Source: an uncultured Spirochaetaceae bacterium (GTDB lineage Bacteria; Spirochaetota; Spirochaetia; Sphaerochaetales; Sphaerochaetaceae). From it: a stretch of DNA of 64,000 nt. The DNA is taken from assembly GCA_944389975.1 (NCBI GenBank), contig CALXOH010000018.1, forward strand, positions 50,594 through 114,593. Direction: 5' to 3'. The notes under the pieces are model-generated. The model made no database searches. It was given only the letters and a program-made list of their open reading frames with translations, and was not told the origin of the DNA. Of the stretch, positions 1 through 62,518 are shown piece after piece; position 1 is the first letter of the stretch, and each line of letters opens with the position of its first letter. Position numbers and translations under genes: made by a program.

Positions 1-77
1 TATGATTTAGTCAATTAATTTAATTCAAATAAACATAAATAATATAAATATTTGATTTAAGTTTTAGACTATATTTC

Positions 78-896
78 ATGAAAAATTTAAAATCATTCAA
101 AACGTATCTGAAGAAGAAAGGATTATCGCCCAACACCATCTCAACATATGTGCAGGCAGTGATCGACTATCAAAAGACATATTCGACACTGACCGAGAAA
201 AATGTCCTAGCATGGAAGGAAAGTTTGAATAGCCGATATAAACCTGCATCAATGGCTGCAAGAATCAAAGGCATGAATGCTTATCTTGAATGCAACGGCA
301 TGACTTTACGACTTACTGGCGTAAAGCTCCCTCGCATCCATCACTTGGAAAACGTGATATCCATGTCGGACTATCACAAGCTGATCCGCAAGATGTCCGA
401 AAACACCAGTTTGCTCACACGCAAATGGATGCTACTTTTCAAGACGATAGCTATGACAGGTATGCGAGTGTCTGAAGCCAGACAGATCAGAGTTGAACAT
501 GTGGAAGCTGGCAAGGCCCAAATCTATGCAAAAGGAGGAATATACCGCATCATCCTCTTACCCAAGCGTCTATGTAAGGAACTGCAAAAATACCTGTCGG
601 ACATCAACCAGGAAGAAGGCTATATCTTTGGGAAGACTACTGAAGAACCATATGCCATAGGAACGATAGAAGCCAAATTGCATTACTATGGGAAGAAGTT
701 CAAGATTCCGAAGGAAGTTTGCCATCCACATTCACTGAGGCACCTTTTCGGAAAAGGTTTCATGGCATCGAAAGGTGCAGACATTACCGTTCTTGCTGAT
801 CTACTGGGACACGCATCAATCGAGACAACCCGCATCTATACAAGGCGAAGCATGGATGAACAAAGGGATGCTTTAGATAAGATCGTTACGTGGTAA
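78..896 (+). CDS. Tyrosine recombinase, probable tail-fibre shufflon invertase
   Basis: A 272-residue XerC/D-like recombinase. An N-terminal SAM-like DNA-binding domain (about 1-80) precedes the catalytic domain. The active-site residues are present: Arg130 in TGMRVSEA, Lys152, His218 and Arg221 in HSLRH, His245 in LLGHAS and nucleophile Tyr254 in TRIYTRR. The TAA stop directly abuts the first TGACGGGTAT core at 897-906, and four more cores follow within 1.9 kb, each at the start of a tail-fibre C-terminal cassette. This arrangement matches Rci-type shufflon recombinases, which invert segments between short repeats. No ribosome-binding site precedes the ATG. Whether the same enzyme also integrates the prophage is not decided by the sequence. 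Confidence 0.88.
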   Translation: MKNLKSFKTYLKKKGLSPNTISTYVQAVIDYQKTYSTLTEKNVLAWKESLNSRYKPASMAARIKGMNAYLECNGMTLRLTGVKLPRIHHLENVISMSDYHKLIRKMSENTSLLTRKWMLLFKTIAMTGMRVSEARQIRVEHVEAGKAQIYAKGGIYRIILLPKRLCKELQKYLSDINQEEGYIFGKTTEEPYAIGTIEAKLHYYGKKFKIPKEVCHPHSLRHLFGKGFMASKGADITVLADLLGHASIETTRIYTRRSMDEQRDALDKIVTW

Positions 897-906
897 TGAC
901 GGGTAT
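897..906 (+). repeat. Shufflon crossover site A (TGACGGGTAT)
   Basis: Core TGACGGGTAT in plus orientation, directly after the recombinase stop codon. It is followed by CTTACATTG, matching the looser flank seen at sites B, C and D (roughly NTYACATTG). Read in the cassette frame it encodes Asp-Gly-Tyr. Confidence 0.85.
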
Positions 907-1158
907 CTTACATTGCCCTCTGGCGTGCTGGTACTTTGGGGACGTGTATCAAGATCTTCTTCCGGCTATGCAACCGTTTCGTTTTCGCCAAGTTTCCTGT
1001 ATGCACCTACCGTATTCTCAACTTGTGCTTATGCAACCAATAGTCATTCCACTGCTAGTGGAAACGGGTATGTCACATCCGTAACAACAACAGGCATGAA
1101 GGTTGGAACTATAGATAAATACTACTCTTATTGGATGGCTATAGGGCAGAAAGGATAG
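898..1158 (+). CDS. Silent tail-fibre C-terminal cassette A
   Basis: An 86-codon open segment without its own start. It begins DGYLTLPSGVLVLWG inside site A and ends YWMAIGQKG followed by a stop. The opening D-G-Y, the L-x-W motif and the terminal (W/F/Y)xAIG motif are shared with the C-terminus of the fibre gene at 2466-3035, while the middle is different. It becomes a fibre tip only if inversion between sites A and E joins it to the constant N-terminus. It lies tail-to-tail with cassette B. Confidence 0.82.
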   Translation, partial: DGYLTLPSGVLVLWGRVSRSSSGYATVSFSPSFLYAPTVFSTCAYATNSHSTASGNGYVTSVTTTGMKVGTIDKYYSYWMAIGQKG

Positions 1159-1201
1159 GCAAGAATTCAACATCCAATATTCAAGTAATAAGATGTCAAA
1201 T

Positions 1202-1465
1202 TTACGTTTTCCCTATTGCTATCCAATAACACTGCTTAGAGCTGTCGGCCCAGTATCTTCCCAAATAAAAACCTGTTTCGGATGGGTTATATAGATTCAT
1301 TCCTTCATCTTGTAAAAGACCTGCTGTAAGTGAAATAAGACCATATGTAATACAAAATAATTTAGAAAAAGGGGGATTAAAGCTAACATATTGAAGCCCG
1401 GCTTTCGAAAGAGACAAAATCCCCCACCTAAGTTGAATTTCATTGTTCAATGTGACATACCCGTC
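1202..1465 (-). CDS. Silent tail-fibre C-terminal cassette B
   Basis: An 87-codon segment read from site B. It begins DGYVTLNNEIQLRWG and ends CYWIAIGKT. It has the same architecture as the other cassettes (D-G-Y start, x-x-W-G near residue 15, aromatic-x-AIG end) but a distinct central sequence. Because site B has the same orientation as site E, it must first be flipped with the A-B segment before it can be joined to the fibre gene by a second inversion, or be joined by deletion. Confidence 0.8.
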   Translation of the reverse strand, partial: DGYVTLNNEIQLRWGILSLSKAGLQYVSFNPPFSKLFCITYGLISLTAGLLQDEGMNLYNPSETGFYLGRYWADSSKQCYWIAIGKT

Positions 1466-1466
1466 A
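1457..1466 (-). repeat. Shufflon crossover site B
   Basis: Minus-orientation copy of TGACGGGTAT, preceded by TAT and followed by GTCACATTG. It bounds the A-B segment (897-1466) on the right and the chaperone segment (1457-1955) on the left. Confidence 0.85.
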
Positions 1467-1504
1467 ATATATTGTAATCAAACGATTTATGATATACTTT
1501 GTCT

Positions 1505-1948
1505 ATGCTTACAGACGAACGGAGAAAACAGATTATTTACTATTGGGATCCTGTTGAAGAATGCTATTATATCGGCAGGCAATTCGTTACTAAATCAGAA
1601 GAGATCAAAGCTCGTTGTACACAGATAACTAACTACGAGTGGAGACAACTCATAGAAAATCCAGTCGAAGGGAAACATATTGGGAATGACCCTGCAACAA
1701 ATAAGCCAGCGTATATTGATGACCCCCAACCATCGACTGAGGAGCTTTTGAGACAAGAACTGTCGGAACTTAAACAATATCTTTCGGCTACCGACTACCA
1801 GGCGATCAAATGCGGGGAACTTGGTCTATCAATGGCAACGGAATATCCTGAGAGTCATGCGAAAAGAACAGAAGCGCGAGCGAGAATCAACGAAATTGAA
1901 TCAACTCTATCAATAACACCACAAGTAATAATATATCCGTCGTATTGA
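1505..1948 (+). CDS. Putative tail-fibre assembly/chaperone-like protein inside an invertible segment
   Basis: A 147-residue protein from the ATG at 1505 (MLTDERRKQ). It has aromatic residues near the N-terminus, a Pro-rich middle and a helical, charged C-terminal half (about 85-140), a layout seen in small phage tail-fibre assembly proteins. The assignment rests on layout and position beside the fibre gene, not on a recognised motif. The last codons are PSY-stop, and the TGA stop is the first three bases of site C. The gene is flanked by sites B and C in inverted orientation, so it can flip by itself. At present it points away from the fibre operon. Confidence 0.6.
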   Translation: MLTDERRKQIIYYWDPVEECYYIGRQFVTKSEEIKARCTQITNYEWRQLIENPVEGKHIGNDPATNKPAYIDDPQPSTEELLRQELSELKQYLSATDYQAIKCGELGLSMATEYPESHAKRTEARARINEIESTLSITPQVIIYPSY

Positions 1949-1955
1949 CGGGTAT
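1946..1955 (+). repeat. Shufflon crossover site C
   Basis: Plus-orientation TGACGGGTAT preceded by TAT and followed by ATCACTTTG. Its TGA is the stop codon of the gene at 1505-1948, and its GAC-GGG-TAT codons open cassette C, in another frame. Confidence 0.85.
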
Positions 1956-2207
1956 ATCACTTTGCCAAACGGAATACTAATTGAATGGAGACAAATCAGT
2001 ACTAAGCAAAATGAAGATAAGTCAGTTGAATTTATAAAGCCATTCAAATCGAATAACGTACAAGTTGTTGCTCAAGCAGGAGCAAAAACAGGAGAATCGG
2101 CCACCTATATAAATGGAATTCAGATTTATTCAATCACTAAATCGTCATTCCGTATATTTTGTGCCATGGCCGCTACTACCGTACGATATATAGCAATCGG
2201 ATACTAA
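1947..2207 (+). CDS. Silent tail-fibre C-terminal cassette C
   Basis: An 86-codon segment starting DGYITLPNGILIEW in site C and ending VRYIAIGY-stop. It shares TKSSFRI and TATTV-like stretches with cassette D, so C and D are the most closely related pair. It lies tail-to-tail with D, the stop codons overlapping in a near-perfect palindrome at 2197-2215 (CGGATA/TATCCG arms). Inversion between sites C and E (1946-2727) would place it on the fibre gene. Confidence 0.82.
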   Translation, partial: DGYITLPNGILIEWRQISTKQNEDKSVEFIKPFKSNNVQVVAQAGAKTGESATYINGIQIYSITKSSFRIFCAMAATTVRYIAIGY

Positions 2208-2467
2208 TATCCGATCGCAAAAATTAATACAGTAGTTGCTGTTCTTCTCAAAATTATTCTAAAAGAGGATTTTGTCATATCACCTTTAGGTATCATTATC
2301 CCATTTGTGTAATCTGAGTAATGGTTAGTACCAGCATCTTGAGCAACAATTGCAAGGCAGTCATTAGGGAAAGGCTTCGCAAAATTCTTTGTACTGTCGG
2401 AGTCTTTCGCTACGAAATAAAATTCCCAGAAGAGTATCTTTTCATTAGGTAATGTAATATACCCGTC
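2204..2467 (-). CDS. Silent tail-fibre C-terminal cassette D
   Basis: An 87-codon segment beginning DGYITLPNEKILFW in site D and ending LIFAIGY-stop. It is in the same orientation as the active fibre gene and directly downstream of it. The fibre gene's own stop codon (TGA at 2466-2468) is part of site D. Recombination between the directly repeated sites D and E would delete the present tip and attach this one. Confidence 0.82.
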   Translation of the reverse strand, partial: DGYITLPNEKILFWEFYFVAKDSDSTKNFAKPFPNDCLAIVAQDAGTNHYSDYTNGIMIPKGDMTKSSFRIILRRTATTVLIFAIGY

Positions 2468-2468
2468 A
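2459..2468 (-). repeat. Shufflon crossover site D
   Basis: Minus-orientation core preceded by TAT and followed by ATTACATTA. It doubles as the stop codon of the expressed fibre tip and as the opening Asp-Gly-Tyr of cassette D. Confidence 0.85.
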
Positions 2469-3035
2469 ATAGCCAACTGCAATCCAAAAATGACGCCGTC
2501 CCCATTCTATAGTATTCAAATAAAATCCAGACTTTGATACTTTGTTGGATACCGGAGGATTAGCAGCTGGACACCATTCTTGATTGGAGACATCACCTCT
2601 GCCAACGATCACGCTTGGTATCTTCTGATAAGATGGAGAGAAAGGAATCCAATGAGCCGGGCCATTTGAATAATCAGCATATCCCCAGTGAATTAGTAAT
2701 CCATTAACCAATCTTGCATACCCGTCATTATCATTTATTTCCCAGTCCTCTCCTTCTACGCCTAAAGTCATCCCCATGCTATAGATATGCTTTATCATCT
2801 GTGACAAAGAGCCTATGTCATAGGTGTTGTTGGTCGCAGGCAGATTCGACTGGTTGTTCTTCCACGCTTTTCCCGACAAGTCAGAAACAGTTTGAGCCAG
2901 CTCGTTAAGAGATTGAAGGGTTTCTGCATCTGCTTGCCGCAGTAATTGAATGAGTGTATCGAGCAGTTTCGCCTGTCCGTCTTTTGAGTCTTTAACTGTT
3001 ACAAGTTCGCCTGTAGTTTTCGGATAATCTGGCAT
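2466..3035 (-). CDS. Tail fibre protein with exchangeable C-terminus
   Basis: A 189-residue fibre. The constant N-terminal part (about 1-103) holds a helical region around residues 15-55 and ends at Asp-Gly-Tyr encoded by site E. The variable part (about 104-189) runs from DGYARLVNGLLIHWG to FWIAVGY and is the currently connected tip. It lies downstream of two other fibre/tip genes on the same strand. The C-terminal domain is expected to contact the host surface, so exchange of it should change adsorption range. Start ATG follows an AGGAG-type site. Confidence 0.82.
   Translation of the reverse strand: MPDYPKTTGELVTVKDSKDGQAKLLDTLIQLLRQADAETLQSLNELAQTVSDLSGKAWKNNQSNLPATNNTYDIGSLSQMIKHIYSMGMTLGVEGEDWEINDNDGYARLVNGLLIHWGYADYSNGPAHWIPFSPSYQKIPSVIVGRGDVSNQEWCPAANPPVSNKVSKSGFYLNTIEWGRRHFWIAVGY
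2718..2727 (-). repeat. Shufflon crossover site E (anchor site in the expressed fibre gene)
   Basis: Minus-orientation TGACGGGTAT inside the fibre reading frame, preceded by AA as at site A and followed by GCAAGATTG. It is the junction between the constant N-terminus and the variable tip. The weaker match of its downstream flank suggests the core plus the tip-side bases travel with the cassette. Confidence 0.83.
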
Positions 3036-3051
3036 TTGTATTCTCTCCTCT

Positions 3052-4116
3052 TTATAATGCGGCGTATGATGATGTGCCGAAAATTGTGCGATTCAGCTGT
3101 GTCTGCACATTTCCGTTCAACCCTGATAGATAGTTCAGTATTGCTGTAGTGATATCCGAAGCGGAAAACTTGCCTTCGGCATTGGAAACCAAAACACGAT
3201 CGGGAGTAAGCGAAGTACCAACAATCCCTTGTGCCTCGTCCCTGAAGTCTTTCGCTTGCAGTGCATACTTTTTTGCAGAGTATTCCGTGCCGTCGACAGT
3301 ACCGTCAGTCTTTGTTGCCCAGGCTTCCGCAAGCGCTGACGCGTCTTCGGCGTTACCTTTAGCGGCAATCGCATCTGTTTTGGCATTATTCGCTTGAGTT
3401 GCACTGTCGGATGCATTCTGTGCCGATTGTCCCGCATTTGTCGCTGACTCAGAGGCCGCAGTAGCACTAGTACCAGCCTTTGCCGCATAGTGCTTAGCAG
3501 AGTACTCGCCGTTTGCTACGACACTGTTCTCAGGGTCGTTGGCCCATCTTTGTGCAAGGGTTGCGCTCTCTTCTGCGTTGGTTTCCGAGGTATGCGCTTC
3601 ACTCGCTTTTTGGACTGCGGTGTTGGCAAAGCCGGAGGCGTCCTGAGCAGATTTCGAGGCATTGGATGCAAGCTGTTGCATAGACTCAACCAAGGAGTCG
3701 TAGAGGTTTTGGATTGAGGTTAGGGCCGCTCCCCTGGCACCTGAATTGTTGTCTTGCCCTATCGCCGCAAGCGCCTTGTTCAAAGCTACCTGCAGAGCGC
3801 CAAGATCTTCGGATACTTTGGCATCCCAAGTCTGATTGTCGCTGGAGATCTTTTGACTAAAAGCCGATATGGCATTTTCGATCGCACTCTTGAGCTGTTC
3901 TACCGCGGCCTCTGCTGCGACAGCTCCAGCCTCGGCGTCCGTTGCGACTTTGCCGAGAGTTTGGATAAGTGTCTTTATCGCGTAGTGCTTTGCCGACTGG
4001 GGCACGCCTGATACAACACGGAAGGCAAGAAGCACATCGTCTTCCAGCGGTGTGCCCGTGTCTTCCGTACTTAACGCCTTGTCTATGTTCAGATCTGAGA
4101 TATCTTGTAACGCCAT
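3052..4116 (-). CDS. Alanine-rich tail fibre protein
   Basis: A 354-residue, Ala/Ser/Thr-rich, strongly helical fibre protein. Two copies of a module about 60-75 residues apart (RWANDPENSVV..GEYSAKHYA and AWATKTDGTVDGTEYSAKKYA) sit in the coiled-coil part (about 175-290), as in many phage fibre stems. The N-terminus (QDISDLNIDK) probably docks to the tail tip. It lies directly upstream of the shufflon-controlled fibre gene, which may form the distal part. Confidence 0.75.
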   Translation of the reverse strand: MALQDISDLNIDKALSTEDTGTPLEDDVLLAFRVVSGVPQSAKHYAIKTLIQTLGKVATDAEAGAVAAEAAVEQLKSAIENAISAFSQKISSDNQTWDAKVSEDLGALQVALNKALAAIGQDNNSGARGAALTSIQNLYDSLVESMQQLASNASKSAQDASGFANTAVQKASEAHTSETNAEESATLAQRWANDPENSVVANGEYSAKHYAAKAGTSATAASESATNAGQSAQNASDSATQANNAKTDAIAAKGNAEDASALAEAWATKTDGTVDGTEYSAKKYALQAKDFRDEAQGIVGTSLTPDRVLVSNAEGKFSASDITTAILNYLSGLNGNVQTQLNRTIFGTSSYAAL

Positions 4117-4178
4117 GACTCAACTATGCCACAGATCGAAAAATCAGATGCGGATAGCGATGGTGTTAACCTATGTTG

Positions 4179-7100
4179 TTAAAACTTCATATGCACAAAT
4201 CCCTCAGAATCAACATAAACTTGGTACTCTTTTATGTTGTATAGTAAATCATCCTCTGACGGAGATATAGGACAATTTAAAAACAACTTATTACCTCCTG
4301 TTACTTTATAAATTGTAAGAGCTTGATTTATGTATATGCTCTGATTTGGTACGGATACATAGTTTTTATTTTGTATATAAGGTGTCCAGGCAGTTGTTGG
4401 TTCAAAATCCTCAAACGCATTATCTCTACGTAGAACTTCAAAATATTCAGTGAGATCAATTCCGCTTCCATAAGAATCAAGAAAAGAAACTTCATAATTG
4501 GCACTTCTTCCATTATTTGCAACTTCGCAACTCGCCTTGAGAAAAACCAATTCCGGCAAGTCTGGACATCTAACACGAATTAAGTCAGATGAAAAATATT
4601 GATCTTCGTTCAACCATGTTCGGATCTCATCGACTAGTTTTTTTGCCTGATCTACACTTACTGACAAAGTCCATTGCGTTCCTGTATCTACTTCGGGAGC
4701 AGGTTCTGTTCTTATCACATCGCAATCAAAGGATCCTGAAAAATATCCTTCTGTAATTCGAGAAGCTTTTGCCTCAAGTCCATAACACTCGATTGTTCCG
4801 TTGCTCTTGATAATCGTTTGACGATTTGCGGACACTATTTCCTGATTTTCCGGGTCATACATGAACCCTGCAGCTGGAGCTGTAAGCTGTTCGTCCGGCT
4901 GTCCGAAGAAAATCCGACCCGACGCCGGATCTATCTGAAAGAGCGTCTTGTCGTCGTACATAACGACAAAAACCGGGGTGACCTTCTGCCCGTTTTGATA
5001 GTCGTAGATCCTGACAGACAAGCCCGAGCCTGCAGTTCCATTGCCGTCCCCTACCAAGAGATTGCGGAACTTGGCATAGAAGCTGAAGATATTGAAGCTC
5101 CCGAGGTTTGCACAAAAGAGATTGATGACACTTTGGATCGTCTGTGTTCCCGGTGCCTGCAGTGCATCGAAGATCGTGTCTTGGAATACATCAAAGGCAA
5201 TGGATGCCGGAGTACTCCCGTCCGCAATCGCCCACTGCGTGCCCGTCCAGTAATACGGGATGCGGGCACCTGTCGCCAAGTCCGTGACAAGGATGTGATC
5301 GCCGAGAATCAACGGCCCTTCGGTCGTGGATACGGGAACCTGATCCAAGGAAGGATAAATCCCTAGGTACTCCGTCTTCTCCTGTCCTTCCTGGACTCCA
5401 GTAACGACAAAACTCTTGGTAATGCCTATATCCGCAACGGAGCATGTCACAGTTATGCTTTTGACATCCTGACGGTTTGCGGGAATTGTTATCTCTATCT
5501 CAGAATCAACGCCCGATGTGACATAAGCCCAAGTTGCCGGGGCCTGTACTTCCCAAGCGCAGGGAGCAGCCGTGTTTATCCTCCTGCAGATAGCGGAGAT
5601 CTTCTGGTCGGGCCGAGTTACGCCACGCGAAGAGAGCCTGAAGGTCGTCGGGTTTATCTCAAGGGAAAAATCAGCAGAGGGAGGTCCCGAAAGGCATACA
5701 TACTCCCATTTGCTTTCCTTGTAGTTCCAGAACTTCTGCCATAGATACGACTCCCCTTCCGTCGGCCGTTCGGGAACGGACGGAGACCAAACGCCTGAAT
5801 TGGTGATGAATGCAATATTGTCCCATACGATCGCGATATCACCCCAAGTGATGATGTCTACGGTATCGTCGGGCTGTACGTCGTAGGACGCACCCCACTG
5901 GAAATAATACTGCGGATCGCCCCCATTCTGCCCATCCTGCAATCTTGTGATCGTGAGGCCTTTGGTAATACCTCCGGCTGTCACTTCCACCAATAGGTTC
6001 TCCCTTTCCCCCATCACAGAGATCGGAATGGATAGAGTGTCGCCTGTGCCCTGCTGCGCAACTCCCCCGAGCTTCCACAAGCACTGTGATGCGATATTTA
6101 CCCGCTGGGCATGCGCGATAATCACTTGGCTTGCCGGATCCGCTTCGCCGTTTGAATTGTAGTGGAAGTATGTCTGCGATAATTCCAGGAAGAGATATCG
6201 GAATCCATTCGAGGGTTTTGTTCCCGAGTGGGAAATTCCTGTCGTGCTCTCGACGACGACAAGAGGAACGAAGTCGTACTTATATACTGGCGTTTTCCTT
6301 CCCTCGAAGGTAGTCTGCACCCCGACGCAAAGAAGCTTGTATGGCAGCCCCGAAATCTGTACAACCTCACCAACCGTTATCTCAACCTTGGATGAAGAAA
6401 GGGATATGTCCGCATTCTCCGCATATTCCTGCATGTGGTAGTTCTTGATGAAGGCCTCCGCATCCTCGGAGTCTGCTATATAGTCCGCGTCGTACTCTTC
6501 CTCCTCGCCCTCTTTCTCAATATCCTTGATTTCCTTCGAATACTTTTTCCAGTATGCACGATCGGAAAGGACTCTGTAACGCTGCACCCCGACGGAAACG
6601 TTCTCGGTGTTAGTAAAGAGTACGGTGGCCTCCGTAGGAGTGACTTCGGCATCTATCTGTATGTTGGCCGCAGTAGTCGCTCCATCCTCGACCTTGACTA
6701 TCGTCGTCTCAAGCCTTGCATTCTTTGCATAGACTATGTTCTTCTCATCTTCTTCCTCGCATGTATAGTCGAGCTTCTCAGGATCCCCATCCTCCGGGTA
6801 TGTCGCACCCGGTTCCAATGTCTGAGCACCACTTCCCTCTTCGTCCGGATCCCCGCTATCGTAAACGTAATAGTTGTCGTCGTACGAATACTCGGCAAGG
6901 GACAGAACCATATGTGATCTCGTACGTATCGGCTGTTGCTTTATCGTAGGTCGGGACATAAAGGAGGAAAGCAACAACTGCCGAGGCGTAACTCCGTCAA
7001 CCTTCCAAGGATCCAAGATCAAAAGCTGGCCGAGTTTGACTACATAGGCAAGCCTGTTTTCGTAAAGGATTGTCTCGAGGCATTCGAATATCGACTCGCC

Positions 7101-7658
7101 TTCAGGTACGAAAACAATCGGGAGGGTTTTTGTCCTGATGACTCCGTCGGGGACGATGATCTTTTCCGTAAAGTCTGCCAAGACGCCCTTGTATAGATCG
7201 TCGACGTTGTCGTATACGGCCTCAAGAAGAAGATGCACAAGAGAATCACTTTCGTCTGATGGATATAGGATTTTCTTTCCCTCGAATACTACACCCCCTT
7301 CCGGTGCAAGTACATCGGAAAAAAGTGAAGCATAGGACTTGAATGAGATCTTGACGTGCACCCAGTCAGGATCGTTGGCCATATCCACTGTCGCCTTTCC
7401 GTCGCTGAAGCCCTCGAAGATAATGACATCGTCGTTTGTTATCCGCACGAGTTTATCCGTCGTATGGAAAAGTGCAGCATCCTCCAAATTCAGCGCACGT
7501 ATTGTAAGGGAGACGTTGGATATGTCTGAGCTCTTCCCGCCAAGGGAAAAGCCCTCCTTTATCTTGATGCTCGTATCCACTACGCGATAGGAAATATTGG
7601 TCCACTCCTTTGCAATGCCGTCCGCTTGTAGTTCCCTGATATATACCTTCAATCCCAT
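4179..7658 (-). CDS. Large tail tip / host-recognition protein
   Basis: A 1159-residue structural protein following the tape-measure gene, the usual place of distal tail and tail-associated proteins. The first 450 residues or so look like the tail-tip core. A block at about 490-580 and another at about 680-760 look like two related Ig-like beta domains: each has a T-Y/F-F entry, an R-x-N stretch and a C-x-W motif. The C-terminal third is beta-rich and Gly/Asp/Asn-rich. It overlaps the tape-measure stop by 10 bases, consistent with translational coupling. No peptidase motif was recognised. Confidence 0.75.
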   Translation of the reverse strand: MGLKVYIRELQADGIAKEWTNISYRVVDTSIKIKEGFSLGGKSSDISNVSLTIRALNLEDAALFHTTDKLVRITNDDVIIFEGFSDGKATVDMANDPDWVHVKISFKSYASLFSDVLAPEGGVVFEGKKILYPSDESDSLVHLLLEAVYDNVDDLYKGVLADFTEKIIVPDGVIRTKTLPIVFVPEGESIFECLETILYENRLAYVVKLGQLLILDPWKVDGVTPRQLLLSSFMSRPTIKQQPIRTRSHMVLSLAEYSYDDNYYVYDSGDPDEEGSGAQTLEPGATYPEDGDPEKLDYTCEEEDEKNIVYAKNARLETTIVKVEDGATTAANIQIDAEVTPTEATVLFTNTENVSVGVQRYRVLSDRAYWKKYSKEIKDIEKEGEEEEYDADYIADSEDAEAFIKNYHMQEYAENADISLSSSKVEITVGEVVQISGLPYKLLCVGVQTTFEGRKTPVYKYDFVPLVVVESTTGISHSGTKPSNGFRYLFLELSQTYFHYNSNGEADPASQVIIAHAQRVNIASQCLWKLGGVAQQGTGDTLSIPISVMGERENLLVEVTAGGITKGLTITRLQDGQNGGDPQYYFQWGASYDVQPDDTVDIITWGDIAIVWDNIAFITNSGVWSPSVPERPTEGESYLWQKFWNYKESKWEYVCLSGPPSADFSLEINPTTFRLSSRGVTRPDQKISAICRRINTAAPCAWEVQAPATWAYVTSGVDSEIEITIPANRQDVKSITVTCSVADIGITKSFVVTGVQEGQEKTEYLGIYPSLDQVPVSTTEGPLILGDHILVTDLATGARIPYYWTGTQWAIADGSTPASIAFDVFQDTIFDALQAPGTQTIQSVINLFCANLGSFNIFSFYAKFRNLLVGDGNGTAGSGLSVRIYDYQNGQKVTPVFVVMYDDKTLFQIDPASGRIFFGQPDEQLTAPAAGFMYDPENQEIVSANRQTIIKSNGTIECYGLEAKASRITEGYFSGSFDCDVIRTEPAPEVDTGTQWTLSVSVDQAKKLVDEIRTWLNEDQYFSSDLIRVRCPDLPELVFLKASCEVANNGRSANYEVSFLDSYGSGIDLTEYFEVLRRDNAFEDFEPTTAWTPYIQNKNYVSVPNQSIYINQALTIYKVTGGNKLFLNCPISPSEDDLLYNIKEYQVYVDSEGFVHMKF

Positions 7659-10600
7659 GATCCTATGACTCCTTCCGTCTGCAAGCTCTTGATGTTACGA
7701 TACACGGCTCTGCCTACTTCTTCCGAATCAAGCCCGTAAATATCCCCGTCGATGCGAATTACTATCGTGCTCGAAGAGTACGAATCGCGCTGCATTTCCG
7801 CAGCGGCTTCCCGTGTCGTCAAAAGTGCTGCAATGTTTTCCTGTTGTGCCTGATTGAGGATGAGTTCTCCCGGGTTTACCCTTGCAAGATGCTGATCTCC
7901 AGTCGAGGGCACTCCTGGAACCTTCGGGACTATACCACCGGTTGCATACTTTGCAGCCAATCCACTGACGATGCCAGATGCAACATACGCAGCTATCGAC
8001 CCTGCAGTGGCGATGCCTGCCTGTACCCAGTTCATCGATATCATCTGGGCAACGGCCTCTGCCGCAAGCTGATGGCCCAAGGACATGAGGATATCTGCAA
8101 GAGCCTCGAGTGCAGCCTTTCCCAAGGAGTGCCATGCATCCTCTCCCGACGCCGTGGCTTCCCTTTCTTCCTCCAGGCTTTTGATGTTTTCATCCAAACC
8201 CTTCTGTTTGTCCTCTGCAATCTTCAGGGCATCTTCGGCGGCCGCGATATCCGCTTCGTTTCCCAAGAGTACTGCCTCGTCGTACTCTTTCTGCTTTTCG
8301 TTTACTTCTTCAAGAGCGGCTGCCCTTTCATCTTCTTTTTCTGCTATCAGCTCATCGATTTCCGCCACCCTTTCATCGATGGTAAAAAGACTAGAAATGG
8401 AATCGGAAAAAGCAGATCCCATCGTCTGCATGAAGGATGTGGCTGAGCCTTTCGCAAATGCCTCCATGTTTGCACCGAATTGTTCCCAGCCCTCGGTATT
8501 GGAGAGCTCTGCGGAGAGATCTTTAACCTTGTCTGCCATTGCATCGAGTTCTTCGCTGGTGGCATTTCCGCTGGCGGCCATACTCTCCATTTCTTTCGTG
8601 TAGTCTCTGATTGCAGACTTGTATGCCGCGATCTTCGCGGAGTTCTCGTCGTAGTATTCACCAAGTCTTGCTTCAACTTCAGAAGATGCCGCAAGCTTTG
8701 AGTCGAGAGAGGCTCCGATGTCATCGCCCGGACTAGAAGAAGGAGTACCACCAGAACCTCCATCCGAGGCCTCCGGAACACCCCCGATCAAAGGTTTTCC
8801 CGTTGCTTTCGCCAGCTCGTTGTAAGACTCGGTCAGACTATCGATCTGTCCCTTCAGATAACTGTACCTAGCACTTCCGAGCTCAACCGTATCCAGCTCA
8901 TCCATGAGCGTGGTGATGTAGTCCTCGGATGCCTCCATGTTTGCCAGCGTGATCTCGCCATACTCCATAGCCTCGACATTGCCTGCTGAGTAAGCGTTTG
9001 CAAGCCGTAAGACTTCGTTTGCCGCCTTTGCATTTGTCGCAGATAGCCCGTCTAGTACTTCGGTAAAGCCCTCGGAGTACATTTCCGCAGCTTCCTGCAT
9101 GGATGCTGCCATATTCTCCTTCAGACGATCGTAGCCTCCGGAAAGTGAGTCGATACGGGCCTTCTGCTCCACGATTTCATCCGTCCATCTTTGCCAATCT
9201 GAAGCAATGTTTTCATCCAGCAACAACGAGCGACCAAGATGATCCAGTTCCTCCCGGCTTATCCCTGCCTGATTTGCAAGCCCGTCAAGCTTTAAATTCA
9301 TCTCGTCAATGACATTGTTTGCCGCGGCTATGTCTGACGCATTGGATCTCATCGCCCTCTCTGCATCCGCAAGAGCCGTCCCCATCTCCGTAAGGGCTCG
9401 GATAAAGGCTTCCTGCGACTGCTCGGCCATTGCCGCCGATGTCTCGTCGGTTGCGGTCTTGGCGTTCTCCTGCGCCGTCTTGTATCGTTCCAAAGCAAGC
9501 TTGACATTACCAAGCGCTGTGTCGAGGTTCTCGGCCTCGGAAGTGTTACCGGTAAAGCTGTCTATCATGTCCGCAAGCATGCCCGCCACATCCTGTACAG
9601 TGGGTTCGAAGAAGCTACCGATGGAACGGCCCGCATTGGATAAGGAGGTTGCAAGTTTCTCGACACCAGTGGTAACAGATGCGGCCGCTGCAGCTGTAAG
9701 ACCCGCTGTATCTTCCATCGCTTCGAGATTGTTCGCAAAGCGTTCTGCATTCGTACCCGCAAGCTGTAGTGCAGTCCTTCCCGCCTCAACGGAACCGAAG
9801 AGGTCTATAAGTGTCTTGTCGGTGCTCTCTGCATAGTCCTCCATCACAGTGAGAATTTCGGCAAGAGTCATGCCCGATGCGGTAAGCTCTGCGAAAGTTG
9901 TAGCACCAAGTCCAGCCGCTTCTGCCGCAAGGGCAAGGTTCTCCGCACCGACTTGTCCTTGCTTTCCAAGCTCTGACAGCAGCTGGTTCAAGCCCGTGAT
10001 GGCTTGGCTTGTCTGGGTACCTGCCGCAGTGGATGTTGCAAGTGCAGCTCCGATCTGCTCAAAGGACACTCCGAAGGCTGATGCCGTAGGGATGACTTGG
10101 GCAAGCGAGGATGCAAGCTGTCCTATAGTAGTCATGCCGAGGTTCTGTGTCTGTATCATCACGCCCTGGACTCTTTCGGCTTCTTCCACAGACATCCCGT
10201 ATGCGTTTATAACCGCCGCCGTTGCAGTAACCGTCTCCGATAGATCTGCAAAGCCGCCCTTTGCCGCCGCTGCGGAAGAACGAAGGAAATCCATCGCAAT
10301 TCCCATGTCTTCCGTCACCGGAACGCCCGAAGACAGTGCCTCGTAAAGTGCATTACCTATCTGATCTGCAGCAATGCCTGTCTCGGAAGAGAGGGAAAGT
10401 ATCCTGTCCCGGAGATTCGAGACATTGACCGAAACATCCCCAAACAGAGTCGATGCCGCACGGATGCTGTTCTCAAGCGCTGCAGTATCCTCTGCTATCT
10501 TTCTGATTCCAACACCTATAGCGGCGAGGAAAAGCCCTGCCTTGAATTTGCTTGTAAGCGATTCGATTCCCTTCAGACTGTGGGAAATCCTGCTGTTGAG

Positions 10601-10669
10601 GTTCTTCAAATCCCTGTCGAGCTGTGTCTGATCTATCCTGGTATCTATCCTGATGTCGCCGTCACTCAT
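7649..10669 (-). CDS. Phage tail tape measure protein
   Basis: A 1006-residue protein whose length should set tail length. The N-terminal 370 residues match the conserved TP901-type tape-measure core (AALENSIRAASTLFGDVS, SSGVPVTEDMGIAMDF, GLNQLLSELGKQGQ). A long Ala/Glu-rich coiled coil follows, with hydrophobic membrane-like segments around 885-925 (AVAQMISMNW, AGSIAAYVASGIV). The C-terminal end has the DQHLARVNPGE motif common in this family. Confidence 0.92.
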   Translation of the reverse strand: MSDGDIRIDTRIDQTQLDRDLKNLNSRISHSLKGIESLTSKFKAGLFLAAIGVGIRKIAEDTAALENSIRAASTLFGDVSVNVSNLRDRILSLSSETGIAADQIGNALYEALSSGVPVTEDMGIAMDFLRSSAAAAKGGFADLSETVTATAAVINAYGMSVEEAERVQGVMIQTQNLGMTTIGQLASSLAQVIPTASAFGVSFEQIGAALATSTAAGTQTSQAITGLNQLLSELGKQGQVGAENLALAAEAAGLGATTFAELTASGMTLAEILTVMEDYAESTDKTLIDLFGSVEAGRTALQLAGTNAERFANNLEAMEDTAGLTAAAAASVTTGVEKLATSLSNAGRSIGSFFEPTVQDVAGMLADMIDSFTGNTSEAENLDTALGNVKLALERYKTAQENAKTATDETSAAMAEQSQEAFIRALTEMGTALADAERAMRSNASDIAAANNVIDEMNLKLDGLANQAGISREELDHLGRSLLLDENIASDWQRWTDEIVEQKARIDSLSGGYDRLKENMAASMQEAAEMYSEGFTEVLDGLSATNAKAANEVLRLANAYSAGNVEAMEYGEITLANMEASEDYITTLMDELDTVELGSARYSYLKGQIDSLTESYNELAKATGKPLIGGVPEASDGGSGGTPSSSPGDDIGASLDSKLAASSEVEARLGEYYDENSAKIAAYKSAIRDYTKEMESMAASGNATSEELDAMADKVKDLSAELSNTEGWEQFGANMEAFAKGSATSFMQTMGSAFSDSISSLFTIDERVAEIDELIAEKEDERAAALEEVNEKQKEYDEAVLLGNEADIAAAEDALKIAEDKQKGLDENIKSLEEEREATASGEDAWHSLGKAALEALADILMSLGHQLAAEAVAQMISMNWVQAGIATAGSIAAYVASGIVSGLAAKYATGGIVPKVPGVPSTGDQHLARVNPGELILNQAQQENIAALLTTREAAAEMQRDSYSSSTIVIRIDGDIYGLDSEEVGRAVYRNIKSLQTEGVIGSWD

Positions 10670-39921: not shown

Positions 39922-39966
39922 CTACTCTCCATCCTGTCTCACATTGTAGCGAGCCTGAGGATGGAG
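39922..39966 (-). ncRNA. 3' hairpin of the TnpB guide RNA / IS end
   Basis: CTCCATCCT and AGGATGGAG form a perfect stem across the last codons of tnpB. In IS605 elements this end hairpin is both the transposition signal and the scaffold end of the reRNA; the guide is the adjoining sequence, here starting about GTCACCAAACAGCC (39921 leftwards). The 5' end of the RNA cannot be placed. Confidence 0.55.
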
Positions 39967-41190
39967 CTTCTTCTCACTCAAGACACCTGATGGTGCCAGT
40001 ATCAGTGAGCTATCCCCGCTAGCCCAGCGGTTCAGGATGTCTTTACCCTCATCCAGCAGGTTCTTTGAGCTGTTCTTGTCCCTGTCATGATGTGTACCGC
40101 AGCTCTTGCATGTCCACTCCCTATCTGACAGCTGCAAGTCATGGTTGACTGCATGACATGCGGAACATCGCTTTGAGGAGGGGAAGAACCTATCAACCTT
40201 GACAAGCACCTTTACCTGGCTGTTCAGCTTGTAGGCAAGCATGTTCCTCAGCAGCCCGTAGCCGTTGTCGTATACGCTCTTGCCGAAGTTCAGGGACTGA
40301 GACATGTGCTGAAGATTGATGTCCTCCACTACCACGGCATCGAATGATCGGGACACATTGCAGGAGAGTTTATGAAGGAAGTCATTCCTCCTTGCACTTG
40401 CTTTCTCATGCAACTTTCCGGTTTTGTGTTTCCGCTCCCAGTAATTCTTTGATCCATACTTCATCCTTGAGAGCTTCCTCTGCTCCTTCGCAATCCTCTT
40501 CTCGAGATTGCGGTACCAGTGGATGTCGTCCTGCGTGATGTCATTCTCCCCTGAGGCGGAGACGACAAGGGATGGCATCGAGTAGTCGAAGGCTTCAATC
40601 CTGTCGAACTTCTTCCTTGTCTCTATTGGCTTTATATCCACATCAAAGGTAAGAGAGATGAAGAACTTCCCGCTTGTCGTCTCCTTGACTGTCGCATGCT
40701 TCATCCTCCACTCATCCGGTATGCTACGGTGGAGTATGATGCGCACTCTTCCGAGTTTCGGCAGTTTTATATAGTTCTCTCTATCACCTTTGTGAATAAT
40801 CTCAATATTGTTGTTTATCCAGTTGGTGGTGTATGAACGTTTATCCTTTCCTTTCTTCCTGAACCTGGGAGTCTTTCCTTTGGCAAAGAGTTTATTACAT
40901 GCTTGATTCAGATTCAGCTGGGTGTTTATGAGTGCCATCGAATCAACTTCACAGAGGAAGGGATTCTCCTTCTTCAGATGGGCAGGTGTTGTATTGAGAA
41001 GTTTTCCTTTGTTCATCTTCTCATAGCTGATGCGTTCATCAAGGAGATGATTCCAGACGAAGCGGCAGCAGCCGAAGGTCTTCCAGATGAGGATCTTCTG
41101 TTCTTTTGTCGGTTTTACACGGAATTCCATGCACTTGGAGACGATGACGGTGGATGGCATCTCTTTCTCTTCAGTTTTTTCTTCCGTCAT
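39922..41190 (-). CDS. tnpB: TnpB, RNA-guided nuclease of the IS element
   Basis: A 422-residue TnpB. The N-terminus has the usual MEFRVKPTKEQKILIWKTFGCCRF..WNHLL start, with PRFRKKG following. RuvC residues: Asp in IEAFDYSMPS, Glu in VVVEDINLQHM and the final Asp in HDRDKNSSKNLL. A C4 zinc ribbon is present (CSACH, CKSCG). It appears intact. TnpB cuts DNA matching the RNA that it carries from the element's end and helps the element persist. Confidence 0.9.
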   Translation of the reverse strand: MTEEKTEEKEMPSTVIVSKCMEFRVKPTKEQKILIWKTFGCCRFVWNHLLDERISYEKMNKGKLLNTTPAHLKKENPFLCEVDSMALINTQLNLNQACNKLFAKGKTPRFRKKGKDKRSYTTNWINNNIEIIHKGDRENYIKLPKLGRVRIILHRSIPDEWRMKHATVKETTSGKFFISLTFDVDIKPIETRKKFDRIEAFDYSMPSLVVSASGENDITQDDIHWYRNLEKRIAKEQRKLSRMKYGSKNYWERKHKTGKLHEKASARRNDFLHKLSCNVSRSFDAVVVEDINLQHMSQSLNFGKSVYDNGYGLLRNMLAYKLNSQVKVLVKVDRFFPSSKRCSACHAVNHDLQLSDREWTCKSCGTHHDRDKNSSKNLLDEGKDILNRWASGDSSLILAPSGVLSEKKLHPQARYNVRQDGE

Positions 41191-60979: not shown

Positions 60980-60989
60980 AGCCTTGCTT

Positions 60990-61063
60990 GTGGGAGTAGC
61001 GAAGCTGGTTATCGCGCTGGCCTGTCACGCCGGAGATCGCGGGTTCGAGCCCCGTCTCTCACG
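60990..61063 (+). tRNA. tRNA-Asp (GTC)
   Basis: A complete cloverleaf: acceptor GTGGGAG/CTCTCAC, D-stem GCGA/TCGC, anticodon stem CTGGC/GCCGG with loop CTGTCAC (anticodon GTC), variable loop AGATC, T-arm GCGGG-TTCGAGC-CCCGT and discriminator G. CCA is not encoded. It is followed by an integrase gene, so its 3' half is the probable attachment site of the element to the right. Confidence 0.95.
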
Positions 61064-61069
61064 AATTCG

Positions 61070-61105
61070 AATAAGTCCTTACGTTGTAAGGACTTATTTC
61101 TTTTT
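61070..61105 (+). terminator. Strong terminator after tRNA-Asp
   Basis: A perfect 13-bp stem (AATAAGTCCTTAC / GTAAGGACTTATT) with a 3-base loop and a following TCTTTTT. The A-tract/T-tract symmetry allows function on both strands. Confidence 0.88.
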
Positions 61106-61132
61106 CTATGGTCGGTTTTCTGGGTTATCCAA

Positions 61133-61170
61133 ACCAAATCCAGACCAAATCCGAACCAATTGAGAGACGG
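61133..61170 (+). repeat. 11-bp-phased ACCAA repeats and inverted copy of the tRNA end
   Basis: ACCAA occurs at 61133, 61144 and 61155, exactly 11 bp apart (first two as ACCAAATCC). GAGAGACGG at 61162-61170 is the reverse complement of CCGTCTCTC in the tRNA 3' end (61052-61060). Position between att and the integrase gene suggests integrase or excisionase binding sites. Confidence 0.5.
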
Positions 61171-61255
61171 TTTTCCGCTTTTCGCAACACTTTTTCCGCA
61201 TTTTGTCACTATCTCATGGAATCCCGATGTTCTAAAACCTTTATAGGAGATGACC

Positions 61256-62518
61256 ATGCGATACAGGAGAAAGTACACCTTATACTCTGTAAAGTACCCT
61301 AACGGGACGAAGATTTGGTATTTCCGAATTTACCTTCCAGATGGTACCAGAAGATCTAAAAGCACAGGATGCAAATCAAAAGAAAAAGCAAGAATGTATG
61401 TTGACCAACTGCTTGATGATGAGGCATTGATCAGGAAAGTATTTGAGAGCGATTTGATTATAGCGGTTGACAGCACAAACACACTCATTCAATCATCAAT
61501 TCCGACTACACCAACCAATGGCATGACTTTCGAGGAATTTGCTTCCCCCTGGTGGAATTGGGATTCATGCCCCTACGTTCTTGCAAGAAGAGCTGCTGGA
61601 ACAGAGAAGCATCCAGGAATCAAAAAAAGCTATGTCGAAACCAGTGAGATGTGGACTCGAAGATATCTCATACCATATTTCGGCAAGTACAAGCTATCGG
61701 ACATCAGTGTCGATATGATCAACAGTTTCTGGCAGGTACTGAAAGACAAGCATGGGCTTGCCCCAAAATCGATAAACAATATCAGATCAATTTTCATCAT
61801 CATGATGAAAGAAGCTGTATCGAAAGGTCTGATAGAAAGGAATCCCGTTGAAATGACAATCGCAAGAACAGTTGACAAGAAGAAACAGGAACTTCTCACC
61901 GATGAAGAGTGTGCAAGACTTTTTGATGCTGAAAGAATTCAGGATCTGTGGAACGACAGAATTGTCTATTACGTCTACAGCCTTGTAGCAGGGCTGACAG
62001 GCTTGAGAGCTGGAGAGCTGCTTGCCCTGACAATTGACGAAGTTCAACGAAACAAAATCATCGTAAAGAGAAGCTACAATGAATCTTATGGCATGAGCAC
62101 GACAAAGACATCCGAGGAAAGAGTCGTCCCCATCACAGATGAGATCTATCGCTATCTCTACGTAGCTTGGCAGAGTCATCCGAATAATGAGAACGACTAC
62201 ATCTTTTCCTTTGATGGAAAGAAGCCGATGAATGAAGGAAGAGCAAGGGCTGCGTTCTACAAAGCCATGGAGAAAATCGGAATCTCTGAGGCAGAAAGAA
62301 AGAGACGTGGAATCACATTCCATTCCTGGAGACATAAATTCACAACGGATTGCGTCAAGTCGAACATGCATCCAGAGAAGATCATGGCACTTACTGGCCA
62401 CAAGTCAGCTGAGATGCTTCTCAGGTACACCGACCTCAACGCAGAGAAGGATCTTTCTGATCAGATCCAGGAAATCCAGAAAAGCAAGAGCAGGAGGATT
62501 ATCGGTATGAATGGCTGA
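61256..62518 (+). CDS. Phage/ICE-type tyrosine integrase
   Basis: A 420-residue site-specific integrase from ATG 61256 (GGAG six bases upstream). N-terminal AP2-like arm-binding strands (YTLYSVKYPNGTKIWYFRIYLPDGTRR), a core-binding domain (about 105-200), then the catalytic domain with Arg in TGLRAGELL, His-x-x-Arg in HSWRHKF, His in LTGHKSAEML and Tyr in LRYTDLNAEKD. It likely integrates the element into the adjacent tRNA-Asp. Confidence 0.92.
   Translation: MRYRRKYTLYSVKYPNGTKIWYFRIYLPDGTRRSKSTGCKSKEKARMYVDQLLDDEALIRKVFESDLIIAVDSTNTLIQSSIPTTPTNGMTFEEFASPWWNWDSCPYVLARRAAGTEKHPGIKKSYVETSEMWTRRYLIPYFGKYKLSDISVDMINSFWQVLKDKHGLAPKSINNIRSIFIIMMKEAVSKGLIERNPVEMTIARTVDKKKQELLTDEECARLFDAERIQDLWNDRIVYYVYSLVAGLTGLRAGELLALTIDEVQRNKIIVKRSYNESYGMSTTKTSEERVVPITDEIYRYLYVAWQSHPNNENDYIFSFDGKKPMNEGRARAAFYKAMEKIGISEAERKRRGITFHSWRHKFTTDCVKSNMHPEKIMALTGHKSAEMLLRYTDLNAEKDLSDQIQEIQKSKSRRIIGMNG

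What the first reader, a model, noticed from the sequence alone, without database searches (positions are those of the whole stretch)
897..2727. Tail-fibre shufflon: five TGACGGGTAT sites, five alternative C-termini
A tyrosine recombinase adjoins five identical 10-bp cores in both orientations (plus at 897 and 1946; minus at 1457, 2459 and 2718). Each core encodes Asp-Gly-Tyr opening one of five related but divergent tail-fibre C-terminal cassettes that share an x-W-G/E/R motif and an AIG-aromatic end. Only one is attached to the constant N-terminus. Inversion between opposite cores would exchange the receptor-binding tip; direct repeats allow deletion. Rci-type and phage inversion systems are known, but a tyrosine-recombinase shufflon of this layout in such a prophage looks unusual.
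Basis: partly seen in the sequence, partly recalled or inferred. Interest (0 to 1): 0.93.

Follow-up and report, generated by a model that had tools for sequence, protein, structure and literature searches.

The report
Prophage tail-tip shuffler (tyrosine-recombinase shufflon)
A prophage in this genome carries five different predicted tail-fibre tips, each starting at the same 10-base site beside a gene for a predicted recombinase that likely flips the DNA between sites, which would let the virus change what it sticks to; the kind is already known from prophages of other gut bacteria, but here it belongs to a set of sister arrays whose sites differ with the recombinase, one of them with 21 cassettes.

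Summary
In detail: five identical TGACGGGTAT sites in two orientations, each opening one of five divergent C-terminal cassettes in the same frame. Extended to TAWTGACGGGTAT they are the only five in the 1.95-Mb genome. The cassettes match C-terminal ends of solved tail fibres; the recombinase is 39% identical to PsrA, an hsdS invertase. This and related genomes hold ten more arrays with verified sites, 2-21 in-frame cassettes each; the site differs with the recombinase subgroup. Two of them (one in this genome) lie inverted relative to each other, both breakpoints in the site. A metagenomic fibre shares 98% of the N-terminus and carries another tip from DGY on. Best reading: a tail-tip shufflon working by inversion, of the kind called Rin in Bifidobacterium and Eggerthella prophages; a new variant, not a new kind. 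No reads or enzyme assay were available; inversion at this very locus is inferred.

The parts
78..896 (+). tyrosine recombinase (predicted invertase), 272 aa; its stop codon TAA abuts the first site
   Evidence: Pfam Phage_integrase 5.9e-24; 39% full-length identity to PsrA; R130, K152, H218, R221, H245, Y254 invariant in 16 aligned sequences (catalytic role recalled)
894..906 (+). site 1 (10-bp core 897-906; 13-bp TAATGACGGGTAT)
898..1158 (+). silent tip cassette A (86 aa)
   Evidence: Gp53-like_C 1.8e-7, above cut-off
1202..1465 (-). silent tip cassette B (87 aa)
   Evidence: Gp53-like_C 0.0014, below cut-off
1457..1469 (-). site 2 (core 1457-1466)
1493..1498 (+). TATACT, possible -10 box 6 nt before the ATG of the assembly gene
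   Evidence: a like hexamer at the same spacing in 5 of 5 clade-I loci (TATACT, TAAACT, TATAAT x3), read by eye; promoter function untested
1505..1948 (+). predicted tail-fibre assembly protein (chaperone), 147 aa; its stop TGA is the first three bases of site 3
   Evidence: PHROG 188 tail fiber assembly 1.2e-4, and better PHROG 17180 of unknown function 8.5e-7; 5 of 5 sister proteins tested match tail fiber assembly PHROGs
1943..1955 (+). site 3 (core 1946-1955)
1947..2207 (+). silent tip cassette C (86 aa)
   Evidence: Gp53-like_C 5.5e-8
2204..2467 (-). silent tip cassette D (87 aa)
   Evidence: Gp53-like_C 6.6e-7
2459..2471 (-). site 4 (core 2459-2468); its TGA is the stop codon of the attached fibre frame
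2466..2726 (-). cassette E (86 aa), the one attached now
   Evidence: Gp53-like_C 2.0e-4 for the whole fibre, below cut-off
2718..2730 (-). site 5 (core 2718-2727), inside the fibre gene
2718..3035 (-). constant N-terminal part of the tail fibre (106 aa to DGY)
   Evidence: 98% identical to P0122, whose tip is different
3052..4116 (-). neighbouring tail-fibre-like protein, 354 aa (context)
   Evidence: PHROG tail fiber protein 6.7e-7
7649..10669 (-). tape measure protein of the same prophage (context)

Best explanation
This is most likely a tail-fibre shufflon: five C-terminal cassettes, each opened by one TGACGGGTAT site, lie between a gene for a tyrosine recombinase and the fibre's constant N-terminus, and the recombinase likely inverts the DNA between sites of opposite orientation, which would attach another predicted receptor-binding tip. 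Inversion between site 5 (2718, in the fibre gene) and site 1 or 3 would fuse cassette A or C at once; B and D would need at least two steps. The site is read in two frames: T-GAC-GGG-TAT (Asp-Gly-Tyr) opens each cassette, and its TGA ends the ORF before it (fibre, assembly protein), so exchanges would keep frame and stop. A predicted fibre-assembly gene with a possible promoter of its own sits between two outward-pointing sites, so its direction could flip without loss of expression (inferred). Shown: anatomy, frames, site families, homologies, inverted sister alleles. Inferred: that this recombinase acts on these sites, that deletion is disfavoured, and that tips change host recognition.
For: Sites and frames. 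Cassettes match Gp53-like_C (3 of 5 above cut-off) and, as a profile of 24 of the 26 clade-I cassettes, C-terminal ends of solved tail fibres: 4mtm (3.4e-8), 9zd7, and R-pyocin fibres 6cxb, 6cl5. Recombinase: PsrA 39% over 270 columns, presumed catalytic residues invariant, model of mean pLDDT 84 whose best PDB match is XerA. Of 16 loci examined, the window included, 11 have verified sites, 79 in all, each opening the same frame as its neighbours; 77 have 67-104-aa cassettes and 2 are cut by contig ends. The site differs with the recombinase subgroup. L036 (this genome's second prophage) against L039: flanks colinear at 88.6% and 92.5%, the stretches between the outermost sites turned round, breakpoints inside TAGTAGCGGTTACA. 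L044/L047 and L037/L038 also show moved or turned cassettes. P0122: 98% over 106 N-terminal residues, after DGY only a 7-residue match. Contig ends within 2.5 kb of the recombinase on the array side: 6 of 15 against 0.97 expected under a rough null.
Against: No reads: no alternative state of this very locus was seen. The recombinase was not assayed. The fibre model was too poor to use (mean pLDDT 43). Cassettes B and E are below the Pfam cut-off. P0122's tip is none of the five, so it shows exchange at the site, not switching among these. L036 and L039 belong to different species and their arrays also differ by unaligned cassettes, so more than one event separates them. In 5 of the 16 loci no such site family was found (L046 and L053 run off the contig; L048, L052 and L054 show none of this kind). 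This locus itself was not found in IMG/VR or the phage collection.
Confidence: 0.92

Rival explanations
1. A frozen array: the cassettes were gathered by ordinary recombination between phages and the recombinase no longer acts, so nothing switches now.
For: No alternative state of this locus was found. One sister recombinase (L047) is interrupted: one in-frame TGA and two separate matching pieces.
Against: This recombinase is open over its whole length with the presumed catalytic residues; the five sites are identical letter for letter; sister arrays are turned round at the site.
Confidence: 0.05
2. The recombinase is the prophage integrase and the repeats are a conserved coding motif.
For: It is of the integrase superfamily.
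Against: The prophage has another integrase beside a tRNA-Leu (L035 6857-8071 and 6654-6737). Five identical codon triplets are unlikely (3e-5), and sister subgroups have other sites.
Confidence: 0.01
3. The locus arms a tailocin (headless tail) rather than a phage.
For: The tip profile also matches R-pyocin fibres.
Against: Terminase, portal, head and tape-measure genes are present.
Confidence: 0.02

Closest known systems
Rin shufflon of Bifidobacterium (PMC6109161) and Eggerthella lenta (PMC8778435) prophages (passages read)
   Same: Tyrosine recombinase without arm-binding domain, short asymmetric sites (11 bp; 8 bp) before each C-terminal cassette, order recombinase - cassettes - constant receptor-binding gene, separate prophage integrase
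   Different: Other site sequences; here a predicted fibre-assembly gene lies inside the array, sites end upstream ORFs, one array has 21 sites, and each recombinase subgroup has its own site. Homology to Rin itself could not be tested
PsrA / hsdS invertases (PMC7096588, passages read, and listing)
   Same: Recombinase 39% identical over its length; that paper reports in vitro inversions by PsrA
   Different: Target is a type I specificity gene, not a tail fibre
Rci / PilV shufflon of plasmid R64
   Same: Many-segment inversion of C-termini of an adhesin (recalled)
   Different: Rci shares only 23% over 189 residues and sits on a very long branch; target is a pilus tip (annotation)
Invertible tail-fibre module of haloviruses phiCh1, phiH1, ChaoS9 (PMC6471424, passages read)
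   Same: Tyrosine recombinase Int1 beside two opposed tail-fibre genes
   Different: Two alternatives, recombinase in the middle, archaeal viruses
Gin/Cin/Min inversion of Mu, P1, p15B (described in PMC6109161, passages read; Mu detail recalled)
   Same: Switches tail-fibre ends; in Mu the assembly gene is also in the segment (recalled)
   Different: Serine recombinases

Membership tests
Rin-type phage shufflon | tyrosine recombinase lacking an arm-type domain, distinct from the integrase | tested here: met
   272 aa, core-binding and catalytic parts only; integrase elsewhere
Rin-type phage shufflon | short asymmetric repeat before each cassette, in both orientations | tested here: met
Rin-type phage shufflon | order recombinase - variable cassettes - constant receptor-binding gene | tested here: met
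Rin-type phage shufflon | inversions with breakpoints at the repeats | tested here: inconclusive
   seen for sister pair L036/L039; not observable for this locus
Rin-type phage shufflon | homology to the Rin protein | not testable with these tools
   no Rin sequence was at hand
PsrA-type hsdS invertase | recombinase homologous to PsrA | tested here: met
   39%, E 9e-64
PsrA-type hsdS invertase | hsdS genes as target | tested here: not met
   the repeats lie in a tail fibre gene and its cassettes
Rci/PilV shufflon | recombinase close to Rci | tested here: not met
   23% over 189 residues, E 2e-5
Serine invertase systems (Gin/Cin/Min) | serine recombinase | tested here: not met
   the adjoining recombinase is of Pfam Phage_integrase

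The most novel reading that the evidence does not exclude
One bacterial family hosts a radiation of prophage tail-tip shufflons in which recombinase and site have co-diverged into mutually private pairs, so that two shufflons in one cell (this genome has two, with different sites) switch independently; the arrays grow to at least 21 tips, serve two different fibre types, and most carry the fibre-assembly gene as a self-promoted, freely flipping module.
Probability: 0.5. Interest if true: 0.72.

Novelty: new variant of a known kind. Interest (0 to 1): 0.55.

Why it matters
It adds eleven verified arrays in one bacterial family to a phage switching mechanism that the papers I saw describe in two actinobacterial groups. 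Because each recombinase subgroup comes with its own site, they offer natural matched pairs for asking how small tyrosine recombinases choose sites and why they would invert rather than delete. An array of 21 cassettes would be larger than any shufflon I recall.

Tried and rejected
IMG/VR searches with the window's recombinase and fibre gave no relative; genome contigs gave one distant one. With alignments, 24 and 8 loci came back (L080 and L081 repeat contigs of the first set). I scanned 26 of these (not L080, L081, L084): none has a site family of this kind at the recombinase's 3' end, but one, L058, was flagged by its repeated words and proved to have a shufflon on the 5' side.

A structure search with the fibre was dropped because the model was poor. 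The recombinase model was used only to confirm the fold (XerA first, TM about 0.56, rmsd 17 over the whole chain, so domain placement is not to be trusted).

I considered that the direction of the assembly gene switches its expression. In the 10 of 11 arrays where I found one (none in L049, which is cut by the contig end) it points with the recombinase in 6 (L035, L036, L044, L045, L047, L051) and against it in 4 (L037, L038, L039, L050) (L050 recognised by eye only). A -10-like hexamer 6 nt before the ATG in 5 of 5 clade-I loci suggests a promoter of its own, so I do not favour an on/off switch.

The contig-end count uses contig numbers rounded and leaves out L054 (truncated recombinase).

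I saw no such system in spirochaetes in the listings (open-licence papers only). PMC5903667 (passages) reports putative inversions in 1 of 8 spirochaete species and prophage tail-fibre inversions in Proteobacteria, without this system in the passages I saw; PMC8042965 (passages) was not relevant.

Full report
What is there. A 272-aa tyrosine recombinase gene (78-896 +) is followed by five copies of TGACGGGTAT in both orientations. Each copy opens a frame GAC GGG TAT that runs 86-87 aa. Four cassettes are silent; the fifth (E) is fused to a 106-aa constant part, making a 189-aa fibre protein. Extending the core leftward to TAWTGACGGGTAT leaves exactly these five places in the whole genome. In the five-site alignment columns -3, -2 and 1-10 are invariant, and some downstream ones (14, 17, 18 and the Trp codon), the latter at least partly for coding reasons.

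Not chance. The window expectation is 0.06. If the five D-G-Y triplets were merely homologous protein, identical codons in all five would have a probability of about 3e-5 under the prophage's codon usage.

The site has two readings. In one frame it is Asp-Gly-Tyr; in another its first three letters TGA end the ORF before it: the attached fibre (...GGC TAT TGA) and the assembly protein (...TCG TAT TGA); the recombinase ends TAA directly before it. Exchanges at the site would thus keep frames and stops (inference).

Tips. Pfam Gp53-like_C matches all five, three above the cut-off. A profile of 24 cassettes from the window and four sister loci (24 of 26; left out were one of L039 and a truncated one of L038) has invariant G2, Y3, W14, A81, G83 and finds C-terminal ends of solved tail fibres: 4mtm at 3.4e-8, 9zd7, 6cxb and 6cl5 below 1e-3; lectin-like discoidin-2 only at 0.024. 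Receptor binding is therefore predicted from homology.

The prophage. Terminase, portal, major head, tape-measure, helicase-loader and RecE-like genes follow. A separate integrase lies upstream beside a tRNA-Leu. A 15-bp copy of the tRNA end at about 36.1 kb of the window may be the other attachment end, giving a prophage of roughly 38 kb (inference; another 15-bp match lies close by).

The recombinase. It is 39-42% identical to the best plasmid relatives; the two that I looked at, PsrA of Streptococcus dysgalactiae (39% over 270 columns) and one of Segatella, lie beside hsdS genes. It shares only 23% over 189 residues with Rci of R64. No NCBIfam model passes its cut-off (best XerA, 138.9 of 220). 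In a 42-row tree the window's clade I (5 rows) and a second shufflon clade III (8 rows) are each one well supported branch; deeper order is open and Rci is a very long branch.

Sister systems. Among 197 genomes searched (188 had some match, most of them weak and Xer-like), I fetched the 20 best loci and set aside four of another subgroup (L040-L043), which show no such array. The other 16, the window included, lie in 13 genomes of one family (L053 and L054 taken by rank only, not in the tree). Sites were verified in 11: the window 5; L037 9; L038 3; L036 3; L039 5; L044 2; L045 8; L047 7; L049 21; L050 7; L051 9; total 79 (L037 has a tenth with one mismatch). All sites of a locus open the same frame. 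Both orientations occur in 9 of 11; L038 and L044, cut by contig ends, show one. Seven site sequences occur, shared within subgroups (L037/L038; L036/L039; L044/L045/L047); each is absent from the 6 kb of the other loci, except that TGAGGCATT turns up 3 and 2 times in L036 and L039, which I take as chance in a long fibre gene. The recombinase's 3' end abuts a site in 11 of 11. Of the other five, L046 and L053 end at the contig end; L048, L052 and L054 show no site family of this kind.

Two fibre types. Clade I shuffles Gp53-like tips, on a short fibre (window) or on a protein of about 1,500-1,600 aa (L036, L037, L039). Clade III shuffles ends of Tail Collar fibres (PF07484 in the 3 of 3 tested: L045, L047, L050).

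Natural inversion. L036 is this genome's own second prophage (G000:C6), L039 that of another species. Their flanks run colinear (88.6% over 3.8 kb, 92.5% over 6.4 kb), while the aligned stretches between (87% and 90%) are turned round relative to the flanks; both outer breakpoints lie in TAGTAGCGGTTACA. Parts of the interior do not align, so cassettes were also gained or lost. At base level the fibre-side sequence is shared up to the site and then switches between two cassettes, which trade places with the recombinase side. L044/L047 and L037/L038 show further cassettes moved or turned. For the window's own fibre, 7 relatives were found: P0121 differs by one residue; P0122 is 98% identical through DGY and then different; the other five have 67-76% identity before and little or none after.

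Inversion or deletion. Sixteen same-direction sites stand in a row in L049. If direct sites recombined readily they should be lost, so inversion is probably favoured (inference).

The assembly gene. It lies between outward-pointing sites in the window, L037, L045, L047, L050 and L051, and next to a cassette in L036/L039; none was found in L049. PHROG models of 5 tested sister proteins tail fibre assembly, L039 weakly (0.0068).

Population sign. Six of 15 recombinases lie within 2.5 kb of a contig end on the array side (0.97 expected), nine within 5 kb (1.93 expected), as mixed arrangements would cause in assembly. This null is rough.

Novelty. Rin shufflons have the same logic; an invertible fibre module with a tyrosine recombinase is also known in haloviruses. 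New here, as far as my searches go (open-licence papers, mostly listings): the lineage, the subgroup-specific sites, the embedded assembly gene and the 21-site array. I rate it a new variant of a known kind.

Noticed in passing
L058 (IMGVR_UViG_3300035502_000186) 3195-6795: A different phage tail-fibre shufflon: PsrA-like recombinase (37% to the alignment's first sequence), palindromic TCATAATTATAATTATGA-like sites, and about five extra C-terminal cassettes ending in YRR[IV]G[ST]N in both directions; the recombinase's 5' end faces the array.
   Followed up: partly
L049 (G058:C3) 1-4948: Array of 21 sites with cassettes of 67-85 aa, cut by the contig end; the largest seen here.
   Followed up: partly
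L047 (G039:C31) 7155-7926: Recombinase gene interrupted (one TGA, two matching pieces) while another array in the same genome (L044) has an uninterrupted recombinase and the same site, so it might be served in trans.
   Followed up: no
L052 (G029:C118) 119, 1114, 1434: Three copies of GAAGCGGTATT in both orientations whose flanks are shared in mosaic fashion, as if recombined at the repeat; no tip-length frames follow and it is not at the recombinase end.
   Followed up: no
L040, L041, L055: PsrA-like recombinases with inverted repeats nearby; possibly phase-variable hsdS loci.
   Followed up: no
window 39922-41190 -: Lone TnpB-like (OrfB) gene by its look; not tested.
   Followed up: no
window 60989-62518: tRNA-Asp followed by another integrase: perhaps the start of a second integrated element.
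   Followed up: no
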